The notes under the pieces: model-generated
The model's input: the letters and a program-made list of their open reading frames with translations, nothing else
The model's database searches: none
What the model was told of the DNA's origin: nothing
In this document: positions 1 through 6,463 of the stretch, one piece after another
Numbering within the stretch: position 1 is the stretch's first letter
Layout of the letters: every line of letters starts with the position of its first letter
Origin: an uncultured Eubacteriales bacterium
Lineage (GTDB): Bacteria > Bacillota > Clostridia > Oscillospirales > UMGS1783
Assembly: GCA_905209135.1 (NCBI GenBank)
Contig: CAJLRT010000066.1
Coordinates: 1 to 6,463 of the forward strand
DNA: 6,463 nt
Direction: 5' to 3'
Translations under genes and position numbers: made by a program

Positions 1-166
1 GCGCGGGCAGGGGCGCGGGCGCAAGGCGTGGGCGTGGGGGCGCAGGCGCGGGCACAGGGCGCAGGCGCAGGCGTGGGCGTGGGCGTGGGGGCGCAGGTAC
101 GGAGCGCAGGCGCGGGGCGCGGGGCGCAGGGCACGGGGGCAGGGCACGGGCGCGGGGTGCAGGGCG
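1..166. repeat. G-rich low-complexity tract with G-quadruplex potential
   Basis: The plus strand is almost entirely G, C and A in short degenerate units such as GGGCGT, GGCGCA and GGGCAC. GGGCGT-type units occur in tandem around 71-91. Between 114 and 164 there are eight consecutive runs of three or more G separated by loops of 2-4 bases, which is a strong G-quadruplex pattern. At least two plus-strand frames are open through the tract, as expected for DNA nearly free of T, so open frames here say nothing about coding. No start, ribosome binding site or recognisable protein is visible. It could be intergenic repeat DNA or the low-complexity end of a gene entering from the left; I favour non-coding. 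Confidence 0.6.
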
Positions 167-167
167 C

Positions 168-201
168 AAAACGGCCCGGACGCGAAATCGCGTCCGGGCC
201 G
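168..201 (-). terminator. Intrinsic terminator of the phosphodiesterase-adhesin operon
   Basis: A perfect 13-bp stem (172-184 with 189-201) encloses the four-base loop AAAT. Read on the minus strand, the stem is followed directly by TTTT (168-171). This GC-rich hairpin with a short U-tract lies about 120 bp downstream of the adhesin stop codon and is the first good terminator after it. The interval 202-321 holds no gene; it shows only small hairpins (for example CATACG at 243-248 with CGTATG at 258-263) without a U-tract. On the plus strand no T-run follows the stem, so it works best for minus-strand transcripts. Confidence 0.8.
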
Positions 202-321: not shown

Positions 322-2958
322 CTATGCTCTGTTCAGTTTCTTTTTCCATATGAGCGCTGCGGCGCCGCAGGCGGACAGGAGAAGCAGTCCGCACCAGAGC
401 GCGACGCTGCCGTCGCCCGTACTGGGGCTGCCGTCGCCCGTACTGGGGCTGCCGTCGCCCGTGCTGGGGCTGCCGCCGTTTCCAAGGGCGGGCAGGACGG
501 TCTGTTCCTGCGTGAGCTCTTTCGTCATCGCTTCGTCGGCAAACAGCCTGCCGCATGCAAGGCAGCGCCAGTACTCGATATTGCCCGGCTCCGCCGCGGT
601 GGGTTCGACGCGGGCCACCTTTTCAGGGGTGTGCGCCGCGAGCGGCGTGGCGACGTCCGCCTCGTCTATCGGGGTTGCGCAGGCCGCGTCGGCAAAGAGC
701 ATGCCGCAGGCGCAGCGCCAGTATTCAATATTGCCGGTCTCCGTGCATGTGGCGGCCTTTGCGGGGACGCGTTCGGCGCTGTGCGTGATGGTCGCCGTCA
801 GGCCCTCGGGCTGTACGAGCACGTAGTTTGCGGCCTTTTCGCCGGTCAGAACAATATTTGTCACCACGGGTTTATCCTCACCCACGGCCGTATCCGCCAG
901 CTTGCCTTTGCCCAGTTCAAAGCCCACTTCGTCATTGTAGAGGACGCCGCTGAGCGCGCCGCCGGTCAGCACGACTTCGTCCGTGCCGTCACAGGCTCTG
1001 TCCTCCGCCTGCACGCCGGTGATCGTGAGCTCGACCGGCTTGATATTCACTGTGTATTCGCCGCCTGTCGCGTCATAGGCGTCGACATAGTAGAGCTCGT
1101 TCCCGGCGTTGTCGGTGGCGGTGTAGCGGAAATATTTGAGGCGGTACACGCCGCTGTCCGCCACGCCTTTCAGCCAGATCACATTCGGCCACTCATAGCC
1201 CTCCGAATCCATATAATAGCTCTCGGGCACTTCGGTCCAGCCGTCGCCGGTCTTTTTCTCGAATACGGCCCGGCCGCCTTCATACCCGTCGTTCCTGCCG
1301 GCTACATAATGGCCGCTCAGGCCCATCATGCTTATAATATTGAAGTAGGGGTCGCCGTACGAGAGGTCCGCCGCGCTGTTCACTACGCTGCCGGCGGAGA
1401 TATTCCCGACCGTCAGTTTGCAGTACACGGTGTAGCTCTCCCCGGCTTTGCCGTCAGGGAATTCCGCGGCCTGCGTGAATGCCGCGTCGCCGAACCACAT
1501 CTCGCCGTTGCTCGGCACGTACAGGCTGCCCTTCTGCGCCGCGAGCAGCACAAACGCTCTGAAGTGGGTTGCAAACTCGCCTGTGGCGGGGAAGGCGTTC
1601 GACGGGTCGTCCACCATATATTCCACCGCGCCCATGACCATGCCCGCGTTTGTCTTATAGACGACGGTAAAGGTTTCGATCGTCACGCTCCCGCCGGCCG
1701 GAACGTCCTCGCCGTTGGCGGTGACGCTGCCCGTGCCGCTGTTGGAAACGGTGACGTCGCCGGGAATGCCGGTGAGCGCAACGTCGCCCTGCAGAATGTC
1801 GATCGTATCGCCGGAGGCCGCGGCCGCGGCGCCGGCGGCTACGTCCGCGCCGACATAGTACGCGGTGCCGCCGCCCGACGAGAGGCCGAGCACGGCGGCG
1901 TCAGGGTCCGCAAAGGCCAGGGGAGACGCCGTATACGAGCCGCCGGAGACGGAGAGCACGTCGCTTTCCTGCTCGCCCGCATCCGCGCCGCTCATCAGCA
2001 CCGCAACGGCGGGCGCGTCGAACGCGCCGCCGAGGATGGTATTGTCCGGATTGTGCCGGCCGCTGAACACCGCCGCGCCGGCTGTGACGGAGGGGCCTGT
2101 CCCGTCCGCCGCGCCGATGGTGGCGCACTTGGTCTGGAACGCATAGGTGCCCGCGTCGATCGTGCCGCCGGTCACCTTGACTTCGACAGAAGAATCCACA
2201 GAATAAACGCCTACGCCGTCGGATTCGATCGTACCGGCGGAGATCTCGACGGCCTGGGCGCTGACATTGGCGCGCAGGGCGCCGTTGCTGCCCGTGTCGG
2301 ATATTACGCCGCCCGTCTGCGCAAAGGAGCCGTTGTTCACATACACCGCGTTGGCGAGGCTGCCGTCGCCCGTGTTCTCAATCCGGCCCGTGCCGGAGAG
2401 CGTGAGGCTGCCGCTGCTGCCGTTGACCTGCGCCGCATGCCCGCCGGAGGCGGAATTTTTCAGCGTGCCGCCGGTCACGGACCCGCCGCCACCGTTGAGC
2501 ATCAGCGCCTGGCTGCCGGCGGTGTTTTCAACCGTGCCGCCGCTCATGGAAAACACGCCGCCGCCGTTGACAAATATGAGCGCATGGCCGCCGCTTTGCG
2601 CGCCGCTGTCGGTAATCAGGCCGCCGCCGGCGCTGTCCTCCAGCGCAAGCGTGCCGCCGCTGAAAACAAAGTAGGCCTTGTCGCTGTATCCGGAGGGCGC
2701 AAGGGTCACCTTGTGGCCGTTCAGGTCCAGCGTGAGCGCGCTGCGGACCTCTGTTTGACCCGTGACGGTGACGTCGGTCGTCAGCCGGTATGTACCGCTG
2801 GAGGGCAGGGCGTTCGCATTGGTCCAGTCCGCGTATTCCGCCGCCTGCGCGGGCGCGGGCAGAAGCGTAAGGACCATGGCCATGGCCATGAAAAGAACCG
2901 CCAGCCGTAAAACCGTTTTCCTCACCGGTAGAATCACGGCCCTTGCCTGTGTTTTCAT
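322..2958 (-). CDS. Secreted adhesin-like surface protein with SPxTG sortase anchor
   Basis: 878 residues, predicted to be exported and attached to the cell wall. The N-terminus has a basic segment, a hydrophobic core (about 18-33) and a likely signal-peptidase site after AQA or AQAA (37-40). Residues 70-345 are rich in GGT/SGGT/TGGxI turns with regular spacing, typical of a right-handed parallel beta-helix (pectate-lyase-like fold). Residues 430-640 are not recognised; their later part looks Ig-like. Residues 640-727 resemble a YDG-type domain (xCDGTD, then LTGGALSG, ending GLTATIT). Two related repeats follow (731-777 and 778-824), each with the core GNIEYWRC and paired cysteines: C749/C751 in the first, C799/C802 in the second. 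The C-terminus is three SPSTGDG units (830-850), a hydrophobic helix (about 852-870) and a WKKK tail, the layout of a cell-wall sorting signal with SPSTG in place of LPxTG. SPxTG-type motifs are substrates of sortase B in Clostridioides difficile. No sortase gene is in this window. The start is set by a strong ribosome binding site. Ligand unknown; the adhesin role is inferred. Confidence 0.85.
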   Translation of the reverse strand: MKTQARAVILPVRKTVLRLAVLFMAMAMVLTLLPAPAQAAEYADWTNANALPSSGTYRLTTDVTVTGQTEVRSALTLDLNGHKVTLAPSGYSDKAYFVFSGGTLALEDSAGGGLITDSGAQSGGHALIFVNGGGVFSMSGGTVENTAGSQALMLNGGGGSVTGGTLKNSASGGHAAQVNGSSGSLTLSGTGRIENTGDGSLANAVYVNNGSFAQTGGVISDTGSNGALRANVSAQAVEISAGTIESDGVGVYSVDSSVEVKVTGGTIDAGTYAFQTKCATIGAADGTGPSVTAGAAVFSGRHNPDNTILGGAFDAPAVAVLMSGADAGEQESDVLSVSGGSYTASPLAFADPDAAVLGLSSGGGTAYYVGADVAAGAAAAASGDTIDILQGDVALTGIPGDVTVSNSGTGSVTANGEDVPAGGSVTIETFTVVYKTNAGMVMGAVEYMVDDPSNAFPATGEFATHFRAFVLLAAQKGSLYVPSNGEMWFGDAAFTQAAEFPDGKAGESYTVYCKLTVGNISAGSVVNSAADLSYGDPYFNIISMMGLSGHYVAGRNDGYEGGRAVFEKKTGDGWTEVPESYYMDSEGYEWPNVIWLKGVADSGVYRLKYFRYTATDNAGNELYYVDAYDATGGEYTVNIKPVELTITGVQAEDRACDGTDEVVLTGGALSGVLYNDEVGFELGKGKLADTAVGEDKPVVTNIVLTGEKAANYVLVQPEGLTATITHSAERVPAKAATCTETGNIEYWRCACGMLFADAACATPIDEADVATPLAAHTPEKVARVEPTAAEPGNIEYWRCLACGRLFADEAMTKELTQEQTVLPALGNGGSPSTGDGSPSTGDGSPSTGDGSVALWCGLLLLSACGAAALIWKKKLNRA
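406..468 (-). repeat. Three tandem 21-bp units encoding SPSTGDG
   Basis: Units at 406-426, 427-447 and 448-468 are identical except for one base in the third (G at 463 where the others have A). Each encodes the seven residues SPSTGDG, so the sorting-type motif appears three times in a row. Only the last copy is at the usual distance from the membrane helix. Because 21 is a multiple of three, gain or loss of a unit would keep the frame. Confidence 0.9.
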
Positions 2959-2992: not shown

Positions 2993-4330
2993 TTATGATA
3001 TGTTCCGCATTTCCGCAGGCAAGACGCGGGGGCTGTCCCTGTCCAGAAGCGGGTCGGCCGCAGGCGTGGCGCGCTCCATCAGCGCAATAAACTGCGGCGC
3101 GGGCATCGGCTTGTAGAAGTAATAGCCCTGGACCAGGTCGCAGCCGATTTCACGCATGTAATCCCATTGGGCCCTGGTCTCCACTCCCTCCGCGACCACC
3201 AGCAGGTCCAGCCGCTTTGCCATGCCGACGACGGATTCCAGGATCACGCGCGCCTTGGGGTTCGCGCCGATGTCGGAAAGAAACGTACGGTCCACCTTCA
3301 GCACGTCTACGGGATAGTCCTTGAGCATGCCGAGAGAGGATTCGCCGCTGCCGAAATCGTCCATCAGCACCTTAAAGCCGAACGCGTGCAGCTTTGTGAT
3401 CGCACGCTGCACGGGGGCCGGGTCGGCCGCATAGGACGACTCGGTGATCTCTATGCGCAGGTAGTCCGGCGGAACGCCGTGCCGGCAGACGGTTGCATAC
3501 AGGTCCTCAAACGAGCTCGCGTCGTAAAACTCGGCTTTGGAGACGTTGAGCGCGACGGGCACGGTCTGTTCGCCCGCGGCCAGCCGCTTGCCGACTGTGG
3601 CGCAGACCTCCTCCCACACATAGCGGTCCAGCGCGCTGATCAGGCCGTTGCGCTCAAACTGCGGGACAAACCTGGCGGGGACAAGCAGGCCCCGCTGCGG
3701 ATGGTTCCAGCGGATCAGGGCTTCCGCGCCCGTGACCATGCCGTCCGCCGCGCGGCAGATGGGCTGGTAGTACACCTCGAACTGCTTTTCCCGGATTGCG
3801 GTTGCAAAGTCCATATTGAGCTGCTGCTCCTCGACAATCGCATCCCACATGCTCTCGTCAAACCAGACGCAGGGCTTGAGATAGCTGTCGCGCGCGCACT
3901 CCATGGCGACGAGCGCTTTGTCCGCCATCATTTCCAGGGGCAGTTCGCGGTTCTCGATCCGGTACGCGCCGCAGCAGGCGAAAAAGTGGTACTCCGCGCC
4001 GCCGGCGATATAGCGGATGACGGAGACGGACTCCCATGCGCCGTCCGCAAGCCGCCGCGCGGGCACAAGGCAGAGAAAGCGGTCCTGCTCAATACGGCCG
4101 CAGGCGGACAAATCGCCGCCGAACTCCTTCTGGAGCGTTTCCCCAAACTCGATCAGTATCCGGCTGCCGGCGCTGTGGCCGAACATATCGTTGATGACTT
4201 TAAGCTGCCGGATGTTCCAGTAAAGCAGGCAAAACCCTTCTTCCGGGTTCTGCCCCAAAAGCTGCGCGGCTGCCTTGTAAAACCCGCTTTTGTTATAGAG
4301 GCCGGTTAAATTGTCGATACAGGACGCCAT
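2993..4330 (-). CDS. Degenerate GGDEF-EAL protein, likely c-di-GMP phosphodiesterase
   Basis: 445 residues from the preferred start. It should hydrolyse the second messenger c-di-GMP to pGpG in the cytosol; there is no signal peptide, membrane helix or separate sensor domain. Residues 1-160 form a GGDEF-type domain (DNLTGLYNK at 6-14), but the signature loop reads RIEQDRF (79-85) instead of GGDEF, so cyclase activity is unlikely; a regulatory role is possible. Residues 180-420 form an EAL domain with every usual metal-binding and catalytic position: EAL at 203-205, N262 in LNVS, E294 in EITE, D324-D325 in DDFGSGESSL, K345 in LKVD, E381 in VAEGVET and Q401 in QGYY. The frame is open upstream to an ATG at 4408, and another ATG lies at 4357, but only the ATG at 4330 has a good ribosome binding site and it begins just before the GGDEF fold. 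It is the first gene of a two-gene operon with the adhesin, and its likely promoter lies in the invertible segment. Confidence 0.92.
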   Translation of the reverse strand: MASCIDNLTGLYNKSGFYKAAAQLLGQNPEEGFCLLYWNIRQLKVINDMFGHSAGSRILIEFGETLQKEFGGDLSACGRIEQDRFLCLVPARRLADGAWESVSVIRYIAGGAEYHFFACCGAYRIENRELPLEMMADKALVAMECARDSYLKPCVWFDESMWDAIVEEQQLNMDFATAIREKQFEVYYQPICRAADGMVTGAEALIRWNHPQRGLLVPARFVPQFERNGLISALDRYVWEEVCATVGKRLAAGEQTVPVALNVSKAEFYDASSFEDLYATVCRHGVPPDYLRIEITESSYAADPAPVQRAITKLHAFGFKVLMDDFGSGESSLGMLKDYPVDVLKVDRTFLSDIGANPKARVILESVVGMAKRLDLLVVAEGVETRAQWDYMREIGCDLVQGYYFYKPMPAPQFIALMERATPAADPLLDRDSPRVLPAEMRNIS

Positions 4331-4374: not shown

Positions 4375-4403
4375 ACAACATAATGTTGATTATGTAGTAA
4401 AAA
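4375..4403. repeat. Left inverted repeat (IRL) of the putative invertible promoter
   Basis: 29 bp, an exact reverse complement of 4610-4638. Each copy contains an internal dyad, ACATAAT (4378-4384) and ATTATGT (4389-4395) around the four bases GTTG, and an overlapping near-palindrome CAACAT-A-ATGTTG (4376-4388). Inverted core arms around a short centre are usual for tyrosine recombinase crossover sites. In the orientation shown this copy lies in the 5' leader of the phosphodiesterase mRNA. The repeat match ends sharply: the flanking bases on both sides differ between the copies. Confidence 0.93.
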
Positions 4404-4431
4404 ACCATTTACATAATAAAGATTCAGATTT

Positions 4432-4460
4432 ATTATAGCATACACTTCTTTATAAAACAA
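4432..4460 (-). promoter_or_regulatory. SigmaA-type promoter with extended -10, facing the operon
   Basis: On the minus strand the -35 is TTGTTT (4455-4460), the spacer is exactly 17 bp, and the -10 is a perfect TATAAT (4432-4437) preceded by TGC (extended -10, 4438-4440). Transcription should begin near 4425, giving a leader of about 95 nt that crosses the left repeat before the start codon at 4330. The repeat's internal dyad could form a hairpin in this leader. No other comparable promoter is seen upstream of the operon, so its orientation should decide expression. Confidence 0.85.
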
Positions 4461-4503
4461 TGATTTTAGACAAAAAATGACATAAAGGGCAAAAAACCGC
4501 AGG

Positions 4504-4549
4504 AAAAACCAGGCCGGCATCAGGTTGAGACAATCCCGGCTTGGTTTTT
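4504..4549. terminator. Bidirectional terminator-like hairpin inside the invertible segment
   Basis: AAAAACCAGGCCGG (4504-4517) pairs with CCGGCTTGGTTTTT (4536-4549) over 14 positions with one G-U wobble in plus-strand RNA, around an 18-base loop. An A-tract precedes and a T-tract follows in both directions; in minus-strand RNA one pair becomes a mismatch. As written it can stop recombinase transcripts before they reach the operon promoter. In the inverted state its better orientation would face the operon. The left arm AAAAACCAGG also matches CCTGGTTTTT at 4562-4571 perfectly, so an alternative fold is possible. Confidence 0.65.
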
Positions 4550-4590
4550 AGCGCCTTTTTTCCTGGTTTTTGCAGCGCTGAAAAAAATAT

Positions 4591-4614
4591 GGCTGCAATT
4601 CTTACAGCCTTTTT
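4591..4614 (+). terminator. Short terminator-like hairpin next to the right repeat
   Basis: GGCTG (4591-4595) and CAGCC (4605-4609) form a 5-bp stem with a 9-base loop, followed directly by TTTTT (4610-4614), which is also the edge of the right repeat. On the minus strand the stem is followed after a few bases by a run of seven T. The stem is short, so strength is uncertain. After inversion it would sit just upstream of the operon, facing it. Confidence 0.4.
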
Positions 4615-4638
4615 ACTACATAATCAACATTATGTTGT
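4610..4638. repeat. Right inverted repeat (IRR) of the putative invertible promoter
   Basis: This is an exact 29-bp reverse complement of 4375-4403. The recombinase stop codon (4630-4632) and its last two sense codons lie within it. Because both copies are identical, exchange between them would leave the recombinase coding end unchanged. The internal dyad is ACATAAT (4618-4624) and ATTATGT (4629-4635) around CAAC. Confidence 0.93.
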
Positions 4639-5463
4639 CAGAATGATCTGGACCCGTTCCAGTCGGCTTCGGTGCTGCCAGCCCGAATCGATGGTGTATA
4701 TCCGCGTGGTATTGATACTGCTGTGACCAAGCAGGTCCGCCAGGCGCACAATGTCCTTTTCAATGCTGTAAAACGTACGCGCGAACAGGTGGCGCAGGTT
4801 GTGCGGAAACACCTTGTCCGGCGAAACGCCGGCCGACGCGCACAGCGCTTTCATCTCCCGCCATATATTGCTGCGGTTGAGCGGCGCGCCGTTTTTGCTC
4901 ACAAATACCGGCCCGGTTTTCAGGCCGGTTTTTTTGATGCGTTCCTTTAACGTTTTCTGCAGGGACGAGGGGATGAATATGACCCTTGTCTTGTTCTTGC
5001 AGCTGACGACGGCCTTGCCCGCATACACCGCCTCTACCGTGATATACTGCAGTTCGCTCACCCGGATTCCCGTGCCGCAGATCGTTTGCAGCACAAGGGC
5101 CAGGCGCGTGCCGCCCGCCGCCTTCACCAGCCGCTGGTATTCCTGCCGGGTCAGCTCGCGCTGTTCGCTGCAGAAGATCTGGCGCTGAATTTTCAGGAGC
5201 TTTACGCAGCAGTGCGCCTGCCCGGTGTAACGCAGAAAGCTGTTGACGGACACCAGCATGGAATTGACGCTTGCGGGCGCGTACCGCGCCGCCAGGTATT
5301 CCTTGAATGCGATCATCTGATCCTTGCCGATTTCGCCGCCGGTCATATAGTTCAAAAAGGCGCGCACATCGCGCATGTATTTCTCTATTGTAGCCTGGCT
5401 CTTTTCTTCGTGATGCAGATACTGTTCAAATTCTGTCAGATTTTTTTCATGGTTGGGATTCAT
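4630..5463 (-). CDS. Tyrosine site-specific recombinase, candidate promoter invertase
   Basis: 277 residues from the preferred start, the usual length for a compact XerC/XerD-like recombinase. Residues 7-80 match the N-terminal SAM-like core-binding domain; 103-277 are the catalytic domain. The full active-site set is visible: R134 in GTGIRVSEL, a lysine in the CKNKTR hairpin (K156 or K158), H221 and R224 in HNLRHLF, H247 in LLGHSS, and the nucleophile Y256 in TTRIYT. Such enzymes cut and rejoin DNA through a phosphotyrosine link. Its 3' end lies inside one of two perfect inverted repeats that enclose a promoter, so the likely job is inverting that promoter. A longer frame opens at 5550, but the ATG at 5463 has a strong ribosome binding site (GGAGG, nine bases upstream). 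A divergent GntR-type regulator lies upstream and may control it. It could instead be a housekeeping or element-borne integrase, but no other mobile-element gene is visible. Confidence 0.93.
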   Translation of the reverse strand: MNPNHEKNLTEFEQYLHHEEKSQATIEKYMRDVRAFLNYMTGGEIGKDQMIAFKEYLAARYAPASVNSMLVSVNSFLRYTGQAHCCVKLLKIQRQIFCSEQRELTRQEYQRLVKAAGGTRLALVLQTICGTGIRVSELQYITVEAVYAGKAVVSCKNKTRVIFIPSSLQKTLKERIKKTGLKTGPVFVSKNGAPLNRSNIWREMKALCASAGVSPDKVFPHNLRHLFARTFYSIEKDIVRLADLLGHSSINTTRIYTIDSGWQHRSRLERVQIILTT

Positions 5464-5639: not shown

Positions 5640-6463
5640 ATGGAACCCAAACAGACCAAACTGGATTTTTTATACAATCTTCTCCGAAAACAGATTCTCA
5701 GCGGATTGCTGGAATACGGAAGCAGGCTCCCGTCGGCCCGGCGAATCGCGCAGACATACCAGACGAGCATCCGGACTTCAAAGGCGGCGCTGAAGCTGCT
5801 TTGCGAGGAGGGACTGATTCAAACCGAGCCGCGCAGACGCGCCGTTGTGATCTACAAAGCCCCGTTTACAAGCGGCGAGCACAGCGCCGTACTGGCGGTT
5901 CTCGCGAAGCGCAAATCCATTATGGCGGCTTATGAGACCATGGAGGCGCTTATGCCCGATATTTTTACCTACTGCTTCCGCGTTACGCCCGTGTCGGCGC
6001 TGAAACACTATGAAACCGCGCTGAAACAGGCGCGGCGGGCCAACCCGGCGGGGAGCTGGTCCGCGGCTTCCGACCTCCTGCGCGACAGCCTGCACGCCTC
6101 CGGCAACCTCCTGTTCCGCAGCGTGTTCAGCGCGCTGGAACAGCACGCAGAGGTCTCCTTTCTGCTGGATTACCAGCAGCCGCTTACGACGTATTCCCCG
6201 TATACGGAGACGGCGAGCCTGCGAACGATGATTCACATCATGCAGCACGCCGACAGCGCCCAGCTACGCGAACGCTTTACACAGAACTTTCACGCGACAA
6301 CGGTTTCCATGCAAAAATCCCTTGATAAGCTGCAGGAAAAATACCCGGGCGCCGAGGAGGAGGATACGGTCGGGTTTTCCTGGAAGCCGGCGGGAGGGCA
6401 GTTCCCCTGTTATATAAAAATCATACGCCTGCTGCTTGAACAGATCGGCGCGGGCCGCTATCC
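5640..6463 (+). CDS. GntR-family transcriptional regulator (3' end cut off)
   Basis: 274 residues are visible and the frame is still open at the window edge. Residues 8-72 are a winged helix-turn-helix of the GntR type: FLYNLLRKQILSGLLEYGSR, then LPSARRIAQTY, the recognition helix TSIRTSKAALKLL, EEGLI and the wing ending AVVIY. The rest (about 80-274) is helical-looking and does not resemble the common FCD, UTRA or aminotransferase-like GntR effector domains, so the ligand is unknown. The region has no obvious membrane helix or signal peptide, so it should act in the cytosol. It is divergent from the recombinase with 176 bp between the start codons, an arrangement typical of a regulator that controls itself and its neighbour. 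Candidate palindromic sites occur in that gap. Regulation of the recombinase is inferred. Confidence 0.85.
   Translation, partial: MEPKQTKLDFLYNLLRKQILSGLLEYGSRLPSARRIAQTYQTSIRTSKAALKLLCEEGLIQTEPRRRAVVIYKAPFTSGEHSAVLAVLAKRKSIMAAYETMEALMPDIFTYCFRVTPVSALKHYETALKQARRANPAGSWSAASDLLRDSLHASGNLLFRSVFSALEQHAEVSFLLDYQQPLTTYSPYTETASLRTMIHIMQHADSAQLRERFTQNFHATTVSMQKSLDKLQEKYPGAEEEDTVGFSWKPAGGQFPCYIKIIRLLLEQIGAGRY

What the first reader, a model, noticed from the sequence alone, without database searches (positions are those of the whole stretch)
4375..4638. Invertible promoter bounded by 29-bp perfect inverted repeats
Two exact 29-bp inverted copies enclose 206 bp that holds a TGC-TATAAT promoter with 17-bp spacing, in the orientation that reads into the downstream operon. 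A repeat this long and exact, with sharp edges, intergenic placement, an internal dyad like a recombinase core site and an adjacent recombinase, is the classic layout of a phase-variable promoter. As written the switch is ON.
Basis: partly seen in the sequence, partly recalled or inferred. Interest (0 to 1): 0.93.

Follow-up and report, generated by a model that had tools for sequence, protein, structure and literature searches.

The report
Self-flipping promoter beside its recombinase
A 206-base DNA segment between two perfect 29-base mirror-image repeats carries a predicted promoter aimed at a predicted c-di-GMP-degrading enzyme gene, and it is likely flipped by the recombinase encoded beside it, which would switch that gene on and off in individual bacteria; related loci carry such segments in both orientations, so this is a well-supported new example of a known kind of switch.

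Summary
In detail: arms 4375-4403 and 4610-4638 are 29 bp, 100% complementary, 206 bp apart. Relatives support the reading as an invertible promoter. The neighbouring gene encodes a tyrosine recombinase with conserved catalytic residues. Of 80 related loci, 62 have a repeat pair just 3' of the recombinase, with core ACATAAT-N4-ATTATGT; the four central bases match within a locus and differ between loci. Homologous segments occur in both orientations, and contigs often end on the 3' side, five within 5 bp of a core. Outward extended -10 promoters are enriched near one arm (41 versus 1.1 in shuffles). By that rule the window is ON; relatives are 33 OFF, 5 ON, 1 both, 23 uncalled. The gene switched encodes a degenerate-GGDEF/EAL protein, followed by a predicted surface protein. 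The closest known case is PdcB of Clostridioides difficile (PMC9286219). Against: the simple scan lists an opposing promoter match inside the segment and not this one. Without reads or a second genome of this organism, inversion here is inferred. New member of a known kind, apparently widespread.

The parts
4610..4638 (-). Right inverted-repeat arm (recombinase side); contains core ACATAAT-GTTG-ATTATGT and overlaps the last codons and stop of the recombinase gene
   Evidence: 29 nt, 100%; arm starts 9 bp before the end of the recombinase gene; core
4375..4403 (+). Left inverted-repeat arm (phosphodiesterase side)
4404..4609 (.). Invertible segment, 206 bp
   Evidence: homologous segments of relatives occur in both orientations
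4432..4460 (-). Predicted sigma-70-type promoter: -35 TTGTTT (4460-4455), 17 nt, extended -10 TG-C-TATAAT (4437-4432), aimed at the GGDEF/EAL gene (ON)
   Evidence: the -10 starts 63 bp from the outer arm end, within the 50-90 bp zone where such promoters are enriched (41 seen, shuffle mean 1.12, max 3 in 50 rounds). Not listed by the simpler scan
4504..4549 (-). Hairpin followed by a T run (4496-4491), between the recombinase-side arm and the promoter: probable terminator that would stop recombinase read-through
   Evidence: whole 206-nt segment z = -3.03, none of 200 shuffles as stable; coordinates read off by hand; function inferred
4591..4609 (.). Short hairpin GGCTGTAAGAATTGCAGCC beside the right arm, terminator-like on the - strand; on the + strand it is followed by the TTTTT of the arm (read directly)
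   Evidence: (- strand)
4630..5463 (-). Tyrosine recombinase, 277 aa; likely the enzyme that flips the segment
   Evidence: R134, K158, H221, R224, Y256 invariant in 22 sequences, H247 in 21 of 22; nearest solved relatives XerC-like, XerA, XerD
2993..4330 (-). Degenerate GGDEF (EQDRF) plus EAL domain with its motifs kept, 445 aa: predicted c-di-GMP phosphodiesterase
   Evidence: (aligned with MorA, 4rnh)
322..2958 (-). Predicted secreted surface protein, 878 aa (signal peptide, YDG domain, PSTGD-hydrophobic-KKK tail), 34 bp after the previous gene: probable same operon
   Evidence: signal peptide and sorting signal judged by eye
172..201 (-). 14-bp perfect hairpin followed by TTTT: probable end of the operon

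Best explanation
The 264-bp element at 4375-4638 is likely a promoter switch that the adjacent tyrosine recombinase would flip, and as written its predicted promoter points at the predicted c-di-GMP phosphodiesterase gene (ON). Shown by sequence: the perfect 29-bp arms, the recombinase with its catalytic residues, the EAL motifs, the promoter match and its direction. Shown in relatives: the same core pair beside the same kind of enzyme, and segments in both orientations. Inferred: the enzyme binds the two ACATAAT half-sites of each arm and exchanges strands across the 4-bp centre; after inversion the promoter would face the recombinase gene, and the phosphodiesterase and the surface-protein gene behind it would fall silent; cells would therefore split into types that differ in c-di-GMP level and surface coat.
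For: (1) Arms 29 bp, perfect. (2) Recombinase with its catalytic set (five residues invariant in 22 sequences, H247 in 21 of 22). (3) 62 of 80 related loci have a core-type repeat pair starting -8 to +76 bp from the recombinase match end (L068, with only an unrelated hairpin, not counted). (4) In 8 genomes all 14 exact-core loci lie within 55 bp of the 3' end of one of 24 recombinase genes. (5) The 4-nt centre is matched in all 43 paired loci of 30 genomes; it is palindromic in 0 of 91 paired sites versus 7 of 48 unpaired sites (from the listed rows). (6) Homologous segments fall into two orientations, e.g. L034 vs L036 same 24, opposite 158; L025 vs L034 same 101, opposite 24; maximum of 300 shuffles 35. 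Where the promoter gives a call, it agrees with this split. (7) Contigs end within 400 bp 3' of the recombinase in 14 of 80 loci against 2 of 80 on the 5' side, five within 5 bp after a core. (8) 41 outward promoters among 126 segment ends in the 50-90 bp zone, shuffle mean 1.12. (9) EAL motifs conserved against MorA.
Against: No copy of this locus in the opposite orientation was seen; the window's organism has no genome here. The simple scan does not list the promoter (its -35 matches 3 of 6) but lists an opposing + strand match, TTTACA-17-TATTAT at 4408-4436 (10 of 12), so the direction rests on the extended -10 and its position. The 50-90 bp zone and the score limit were chosen after seeing the list on the same loci; 23 of 63 segments got no call. 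Four of the 80 relatives have 200 bp or more of 3' sequence but no clear site pair (L033, L058, L064, L075). The two viral contigs of one lineage had the same orientation (L084, L085). Enzyme activity, transcription and operon structure are predicted.
Confidence: 0.85

Rival explanations
1. The repeats are the recombination sites of a mobile or integrated element (an integrase with its attachment sites), not a promoter switch.
For: The enzyme is a tyrosine recombinase of the Xer/integrase superfamily, and ten relatives lie in contigs called viral.
Against: Attachment sites would be direct repeats flanking cargo (established knowledge); here the 43 paired loci have cores in inverted order 168-423 bp apart, with no close direct pair in the 100-600 bp range, a promoter in the segment, and genes outside that often have surface or signalling domains.
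Confidence: 0.04
2. The repeat is a cruciform, a terminator structure or a binding site for a regulator, and does not recombine.
For: Each arm is itself a dyad, and the segment is strongly folded as RNA (z -3.03).
Against: Centres are matched within each locus and not palindromic in 91 paired sites; homologous segments are found in both orientations; contigs break at cores.
Confidence: 0.04
3. A fossil switch: the layout is that of an inverton, but this copy is locked ON.
For: Only one orientation is seen here, and it is the rarer one among relatives with a call (5 ON versus 33 OFF, window excluded).
Against: Arms are identical over 29 bp and the recombinase is intact, whereas some relatives without a pair show damaged cores (L033, L064).
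Confidence: 0.07

Closest known systems
pdcB (Cdi2) and pdcC (Cdi3) switches of Clostridioides difficile (PMC9286219; abstract, section 8 and passages seen)
   Same: Invertible promoter upstream of a degenerate-GGDEF/EAL c-di-GMP phosphodiesterase; the pdcB element is 174 bp, of similar size.
   Different: PdcB has a PAS domain, 19-bp imperfect repeats and the switch 840 bp upstream; its recombinase was not identified there, and RecV was only partly required for Cdi2 in PMC5903667. Here there is no PAS hit, the arms are 29 bp and perfect, the gene starts 44 bp from the arm, and a recombinase is adjacent.
Inverton group 139 with invertase group 35 in the hCom2 gut community (PMC11892184; section 8 and passages seen)
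   Same: 33 invertons, 32 from Clostridia, nearly all with a tyrosine-type recombinase nearby; that study detected invertons from reads. Probably the same family as here.
   Different: The repeat motif and enzyme sequences were not in the passages seen, so identity was not tested. Searches of its text for antisense, spacer, palindrom and ATTATGT found nothing.
Cdi7 with CDR20291_3416 in C. difficile (PMC5903667; section 13 and passages seen)
   Same: The only R20291 switch with a recombinase in its vicinity, suggested there as its possible enzyme.
   Different: Cdi7 spans a small ORF of 228 nt rather than a bare promoter; sequences were not compared here.
fim switch of Escherichia coli with FimB/FimE (recalled; size 314 bp from a passage of PMC5903667)
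   Same: Tyrosine recombinase genes beside an invertible promoter bounded by short inverted repeats.
   Different: Two enzymes with different bias, 9-bp repeats and fimbrial target genes (all recalled).

Membership tests
Invertible promoter (inverton) | Perfect or near-perfect inverted repeats bounding a short intergenic segment | tested here: met
Invertible promoter (inverton) | Promoter inside the segment, aimed at the neighbouring gene in one orientation | tested here: met
   Sequence level only; one search does not list this promoter and lists an opposing match
Invertible promoter (inverton) | Both orientations exist | tested here: inconclusive
   Met among relatives; could not be tested for this organism
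Invertible promoter (inverton) | Orientation changes expression | not testable with these tools
   Needs RNA or a reporter
Tyrosine recombinase | Catalytic R-K-H-R-H-Y | tested here: met
   In the window's protein all six are present; R134, K158, H221, R224, Y256 invariant in A1, H247 in 21 of 22 (residue roles recalled)
Tyrosine recombinase | Core site of two inverted half-sites around a short centre shared by both recombining sites | tested here: met
PdcB-type phase-variable c-di-GMP phosphodiesterase | Degenerate GGDEF plus EAL with conserved catalytic motifs | tested here: met
   (EQDRF in place of GGDEF; EAL, DDFGSG and EGVE motifs kept)
PdcB-type phase-variable c-di-GMP phosphodiesterase | N-terminal PAS domain as in PdcB | tested here: not met
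   one search shows only GGDEF and EAL; so it works like PdcB but is not filed as PdcB
hCom2 inverton group 139 / invertase group 35 | Repeat motif and enzyme in the same sequence groups | not tested

The most novel reading that the evidence does not exclude
This is one copy of a widespread Clostridia family of self-contained, self-addressed switches. All enzymes read the same ACATAAT half-sites, while a non-palindromic 4-bp centre serves as the address and direction code, so that several cassettes can run side by side in one genome. In the OFF state the promoter fires antisense into the switch's own recombinase gene, damping the enzyme and making OFF self-locking, which would explain why relatives with a promoter call are mostly OFF (33 versus 5).
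Probability: 0.25. Interest if true: 0.65.

Novelty: new member of a known kind. Interest (0 to 1): 0.45.

Why it matters
It would link a heritable coin-flip to c-di-GMP turnover and a surface protein in a bacterium (by its homologues a Clostridia relative) whose genome is not held here, extending what is known from C. difficile to a locus that carries its own likely enzyme. The family gives a simple motif, ACATAAT-N4-ATTATGT in an inverted pair beside the recombinase, with which such switches, and often their ON/OFF state, can be read from assemblies. The orientation bias and the antisense geometry make a feedback hypothesis directly testable.

Tried and rejected
Upstream target of the OFF orientation: if the flipped promoter were meant to drive a gene beyond the recombinase, that neighbour should usually lie on the opposite strand; it does not (31 same, 29 opposite), so this was dropped as a general rule, although in the window the GntR-type gene at 5640 does lie that way.

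Loss of an N-terminal sensor from the phosphodiesterase: I assumed this from homologue lengths (and noted it wrongly in notebook entry 2); one search showed that the longer homologues have an extra C-terminal part instead, so the idea was rejected.

Distinct centres within one genome as proof of an address code: 0 coincidences in 8 genomes with more than one paired locus, but with so many possible centres few are expected anyway, so it proves little. Likewise 0 palindromic centres among the 43 paired loci alone is weak (P 0.06 under a uniform 1/16 model), and the contrast with unpaired sites (Fisher P 0.0004) counts both sites of each pair and may partly reflect AT-rich chance matches.

Same-species comparison: viral contigs gave one pair, L084 and L085, identical over 8,822 bp and so in the same orientation. 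Close relatives were few: 7 of 397 family genomes at E 1e-100, 5 of 64 genus genomes at 1e-80, and genera of only 1, 1 and 2 held genomes. No inner segment resembled the window's well enough to compare; L043 in the opposite sense scored 43 against a shuffle maximum of 35, too weak with 1,953 pairs. No Rfam family matched the window. Three literature searches naming Lachnospiraceae, Roseburia or Blautia returned nothing.

Mended on checking: H247 is in 21 of 22 sequences, not all; the five contigs end within 5 bp after a core, not exactly at it; the opposing promoter match is now told. Confidence was lowered from 0.88 to 0.85 for the last reason, and the fossil rival set to 0.07 so that the odds add up.

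Full report
The observation. The window contains a perfect 29-bp inverted repeat at 4375-4403 and 4610-4638 with 206 bp between. On the - strand a GGDEF/EAL gene (2993-4330) lies on one side and a tyrosine recombinase gene (4630-5463) on the other. The recombinase's stop lies inside the right arm. Each arm carries a 24-bp dyad with the core ACATAAT-GTTG-ATTATGT. A promoter match, TTGTTT-17 nt-TATAAT with TG before the -10, lies inside the segment and points at the GGDEF/EAL gene. The simple consensus scan does not list this promoter, whose -35 matches 3 of 6; it lists an opposing match on the + strand at 4408-4436 and a - strand match at 4492-4463.

The enzyme. The recombinase has thousands of homologues (7,998 scored and matched, where only the candidates sharing most words are scored). 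Apart from the window's own protein, the listed ones are 68-74% identical, with named examples in Blautia and Lactonifactor. In an alignment of 22, the residues I recall as the catalytic set are conserved: R134, K158, H221, R224 and Y256 in all, H247 in 21 (P0100 has Y). The nearest solved structures by sequence are XerC-like, XerA and XerD enzymes.

The family. In 62 of the 80, a core-type inverted repeat pair starts between 8 bp before and 76 bp after the end of the recombinase match (from the 63 loci I dropped L068, whose repeat there was an unrelated hairpin). The other 17 were inspected, which printed the first 110 bp: five contigs end within 5 bp after a first core (L001, L008, L051, L065, L076); seven show one core and hold no second that forms a pair before the contig ends (L022, L023, L032, L038, L047, L059, L080); one ends in what looks like the start of a core (L041); four show no clear pair with 200 bp or more of sequence present (L033, L058, L064, L075).

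The core. Over 62 loci plus the window, all cores match ACATAAT-N4-ATTATGT at 12 or more of the 14 fixed positions; the centre takes 45 forms and is palindromic in none of 63. The two arms of each locus share the centre in the listing. Exact cores in whole genomes give the same picture. In eight genomes that hold a relative, six have exact cores and none has the reversed control pattern; all 14 exact-core loci lie within 55 bp of the 3' end of one of 24 recombinase genes. One genome, that of L040 (Clostridium transplantifaecale by its record title), has eight recombinases and six exact paired loci, each beside its own recombinase. In samples of a family and a class, 19 of 150 and 69 of 391 genomes have at least one exact core; by my count of the rows the control pattern hits 5 of 150 and 19 of 391, so some single cores are chance. 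Among the 139 sites that I took from the listed rows, 91 are paired, forming 43 loci in 30 genomes; every pair 100-600 bp apart has complementary centres, and palindromic centres occur in 0 of 91 paired but 7 of 48 unpaired sites. A symmetric centre would leave a site without direction, so its absence fits an inversion system; this is inference.

Evidence that the segments flip. I compared inner segments, arms excluded, in both senses (the 45 best of 1,953 pairs were listed). Nine homologous segments split into two groups, and in each listed pair the larger score agrees with the split: L014, L017, L035, L036, L069, L077 in one sense and L021, L025, L034 in the other. A second set does the same (L012, L062 versus L024, L027), with one undecided pair (L024/L062, 45 versus 44); it is weaker, because L012 scores 71 against its own reverse, above its score of 65 with L024. 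The promoter calls agree with the split wherever one was made (L014, L035, L036, L069, L077 and L027 OFF; L021, L012 and L062 ON; the other four uncalled). In addition, contigs stop within 400 bp on the 3' side of the recombinase in 14 of 80 loci but on the 5' side in only 2, and five stop within 5 bp after a core. Six of the 139 whole-genome sites begin within 5 bp of a contig start. Assemblers tend to break where two orientations coexist, so this suggests flipping in the sampled populations; repeats in nearby surface genes could contribute.

The promoter and its state. After seeing the unrestricted list, I looked 50-90 bp from the outer end of each arm for an outward promoter. At a score of 10.5 or more there are 41 among 126 segment ends, against a mean of 1.12 and a maximum of 3 in 50 rounds of shuffled segments; zone and limit were thus chosen on the same loci. 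By this rule 33 segments point at the recombinase (OFF for the downstream gene), 6 point downstream (ON, including the window), one has both (L009) and 23 get no call. Thus the window is in the rarer state. In the OFF state the promoter reads antisense into the recombinase. That could damp the enzyme and favour OFF, but nothing here tests it.

What is switched. The GGDEF domain is degenerate (EQDRF) while the EAL domain keeps its motifs in an alignment with MorA, PDB 4rnh. Its start at 4330 lines up with homologues, several of which are longer at the C-terminus. A predicted cell-wall surface protein follows after 34 bp, and a hairpin with a T run closes the stretch at 172-201. Of the 62 relatives, 53 had a same-strand ORF of 100 aa or more within 1 kb of the switch. 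Among these 53 the commonest Pfam hits are SLH 4, Peptidase_M73 4, Listeria-Bacteroides repeat 3, LRR_5 3, InlB-type repeat 3, dockerin 3 and TetR_N 3; c-di-GMP-type domains are GGDEF 2, EAL 1 and HD_5 1. L018 has a GGDEF/EAL gene starting at the end of its switch.

Comparison with what is known. The phase-variable phosphodiesterases PdcB and PdcC of C. difficile are the closest functional precedent; for pdcB the recombinase was not identified (PMC9286219, abstract, section 8 and passages). Invertible sites near signalling genes were reported as prevalent in Clostridia (PMC5903667, section 13 and passages). A read-based survey linked an inverton group of 33 members, 32 from Clostridia, to one group of tyrosine recombinases (PMC11892184, section 8 and passages); this is probably the same family, but I could not compare sequences. 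The finding is therefore a new member of a known kind. What I did not find in the passages seen, nor in the listings of searches, are the core motif with its centre rule, the outward promoter at a similar distance, and the OFF bias; most subscription papers, including the first inverton survey (recalled), are outside that library.

Noticed in passing
window 1-168: Very GC-rich low-complexity tract of imperfect tandem repeats after the operon's end (periods 6 to 45).
   Followed up: partly
window 406-475: Near-perfect 21-bp tandem repeat (3.3 copies) at the 3' end of the surface-protein gene, encoding repeated SPSTGDG units next to the predicted cell-wall anchor.
   Followed up: partly
window 5640-6461: GntR-type regulator gene diverging from the recombinase; a flipped promoter would read antisense through the recombinase towards this gene.
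   Followed up: partly
G007 C10:164921 and 186778; G533 C15:7661; G553 C5:71040; G746 C25:58: Five switches have a third core 31-63 bp from one of the pair, in direct orientation with it, giving two alternative inversion boundaries.
   Followed up: no
L009, 1260-1660: Segment with near-perfect outward promoters at both ends, so it would be ON in either orientation.
   Followed up: no
L081-L090: Ten relatives of the recombinase lie on contigs classed as viral in IMG/VR, some with the same inverted cores (L083, L087), which hints at prophage-borne or prophage-adjacent switches.
   Followed up: partly
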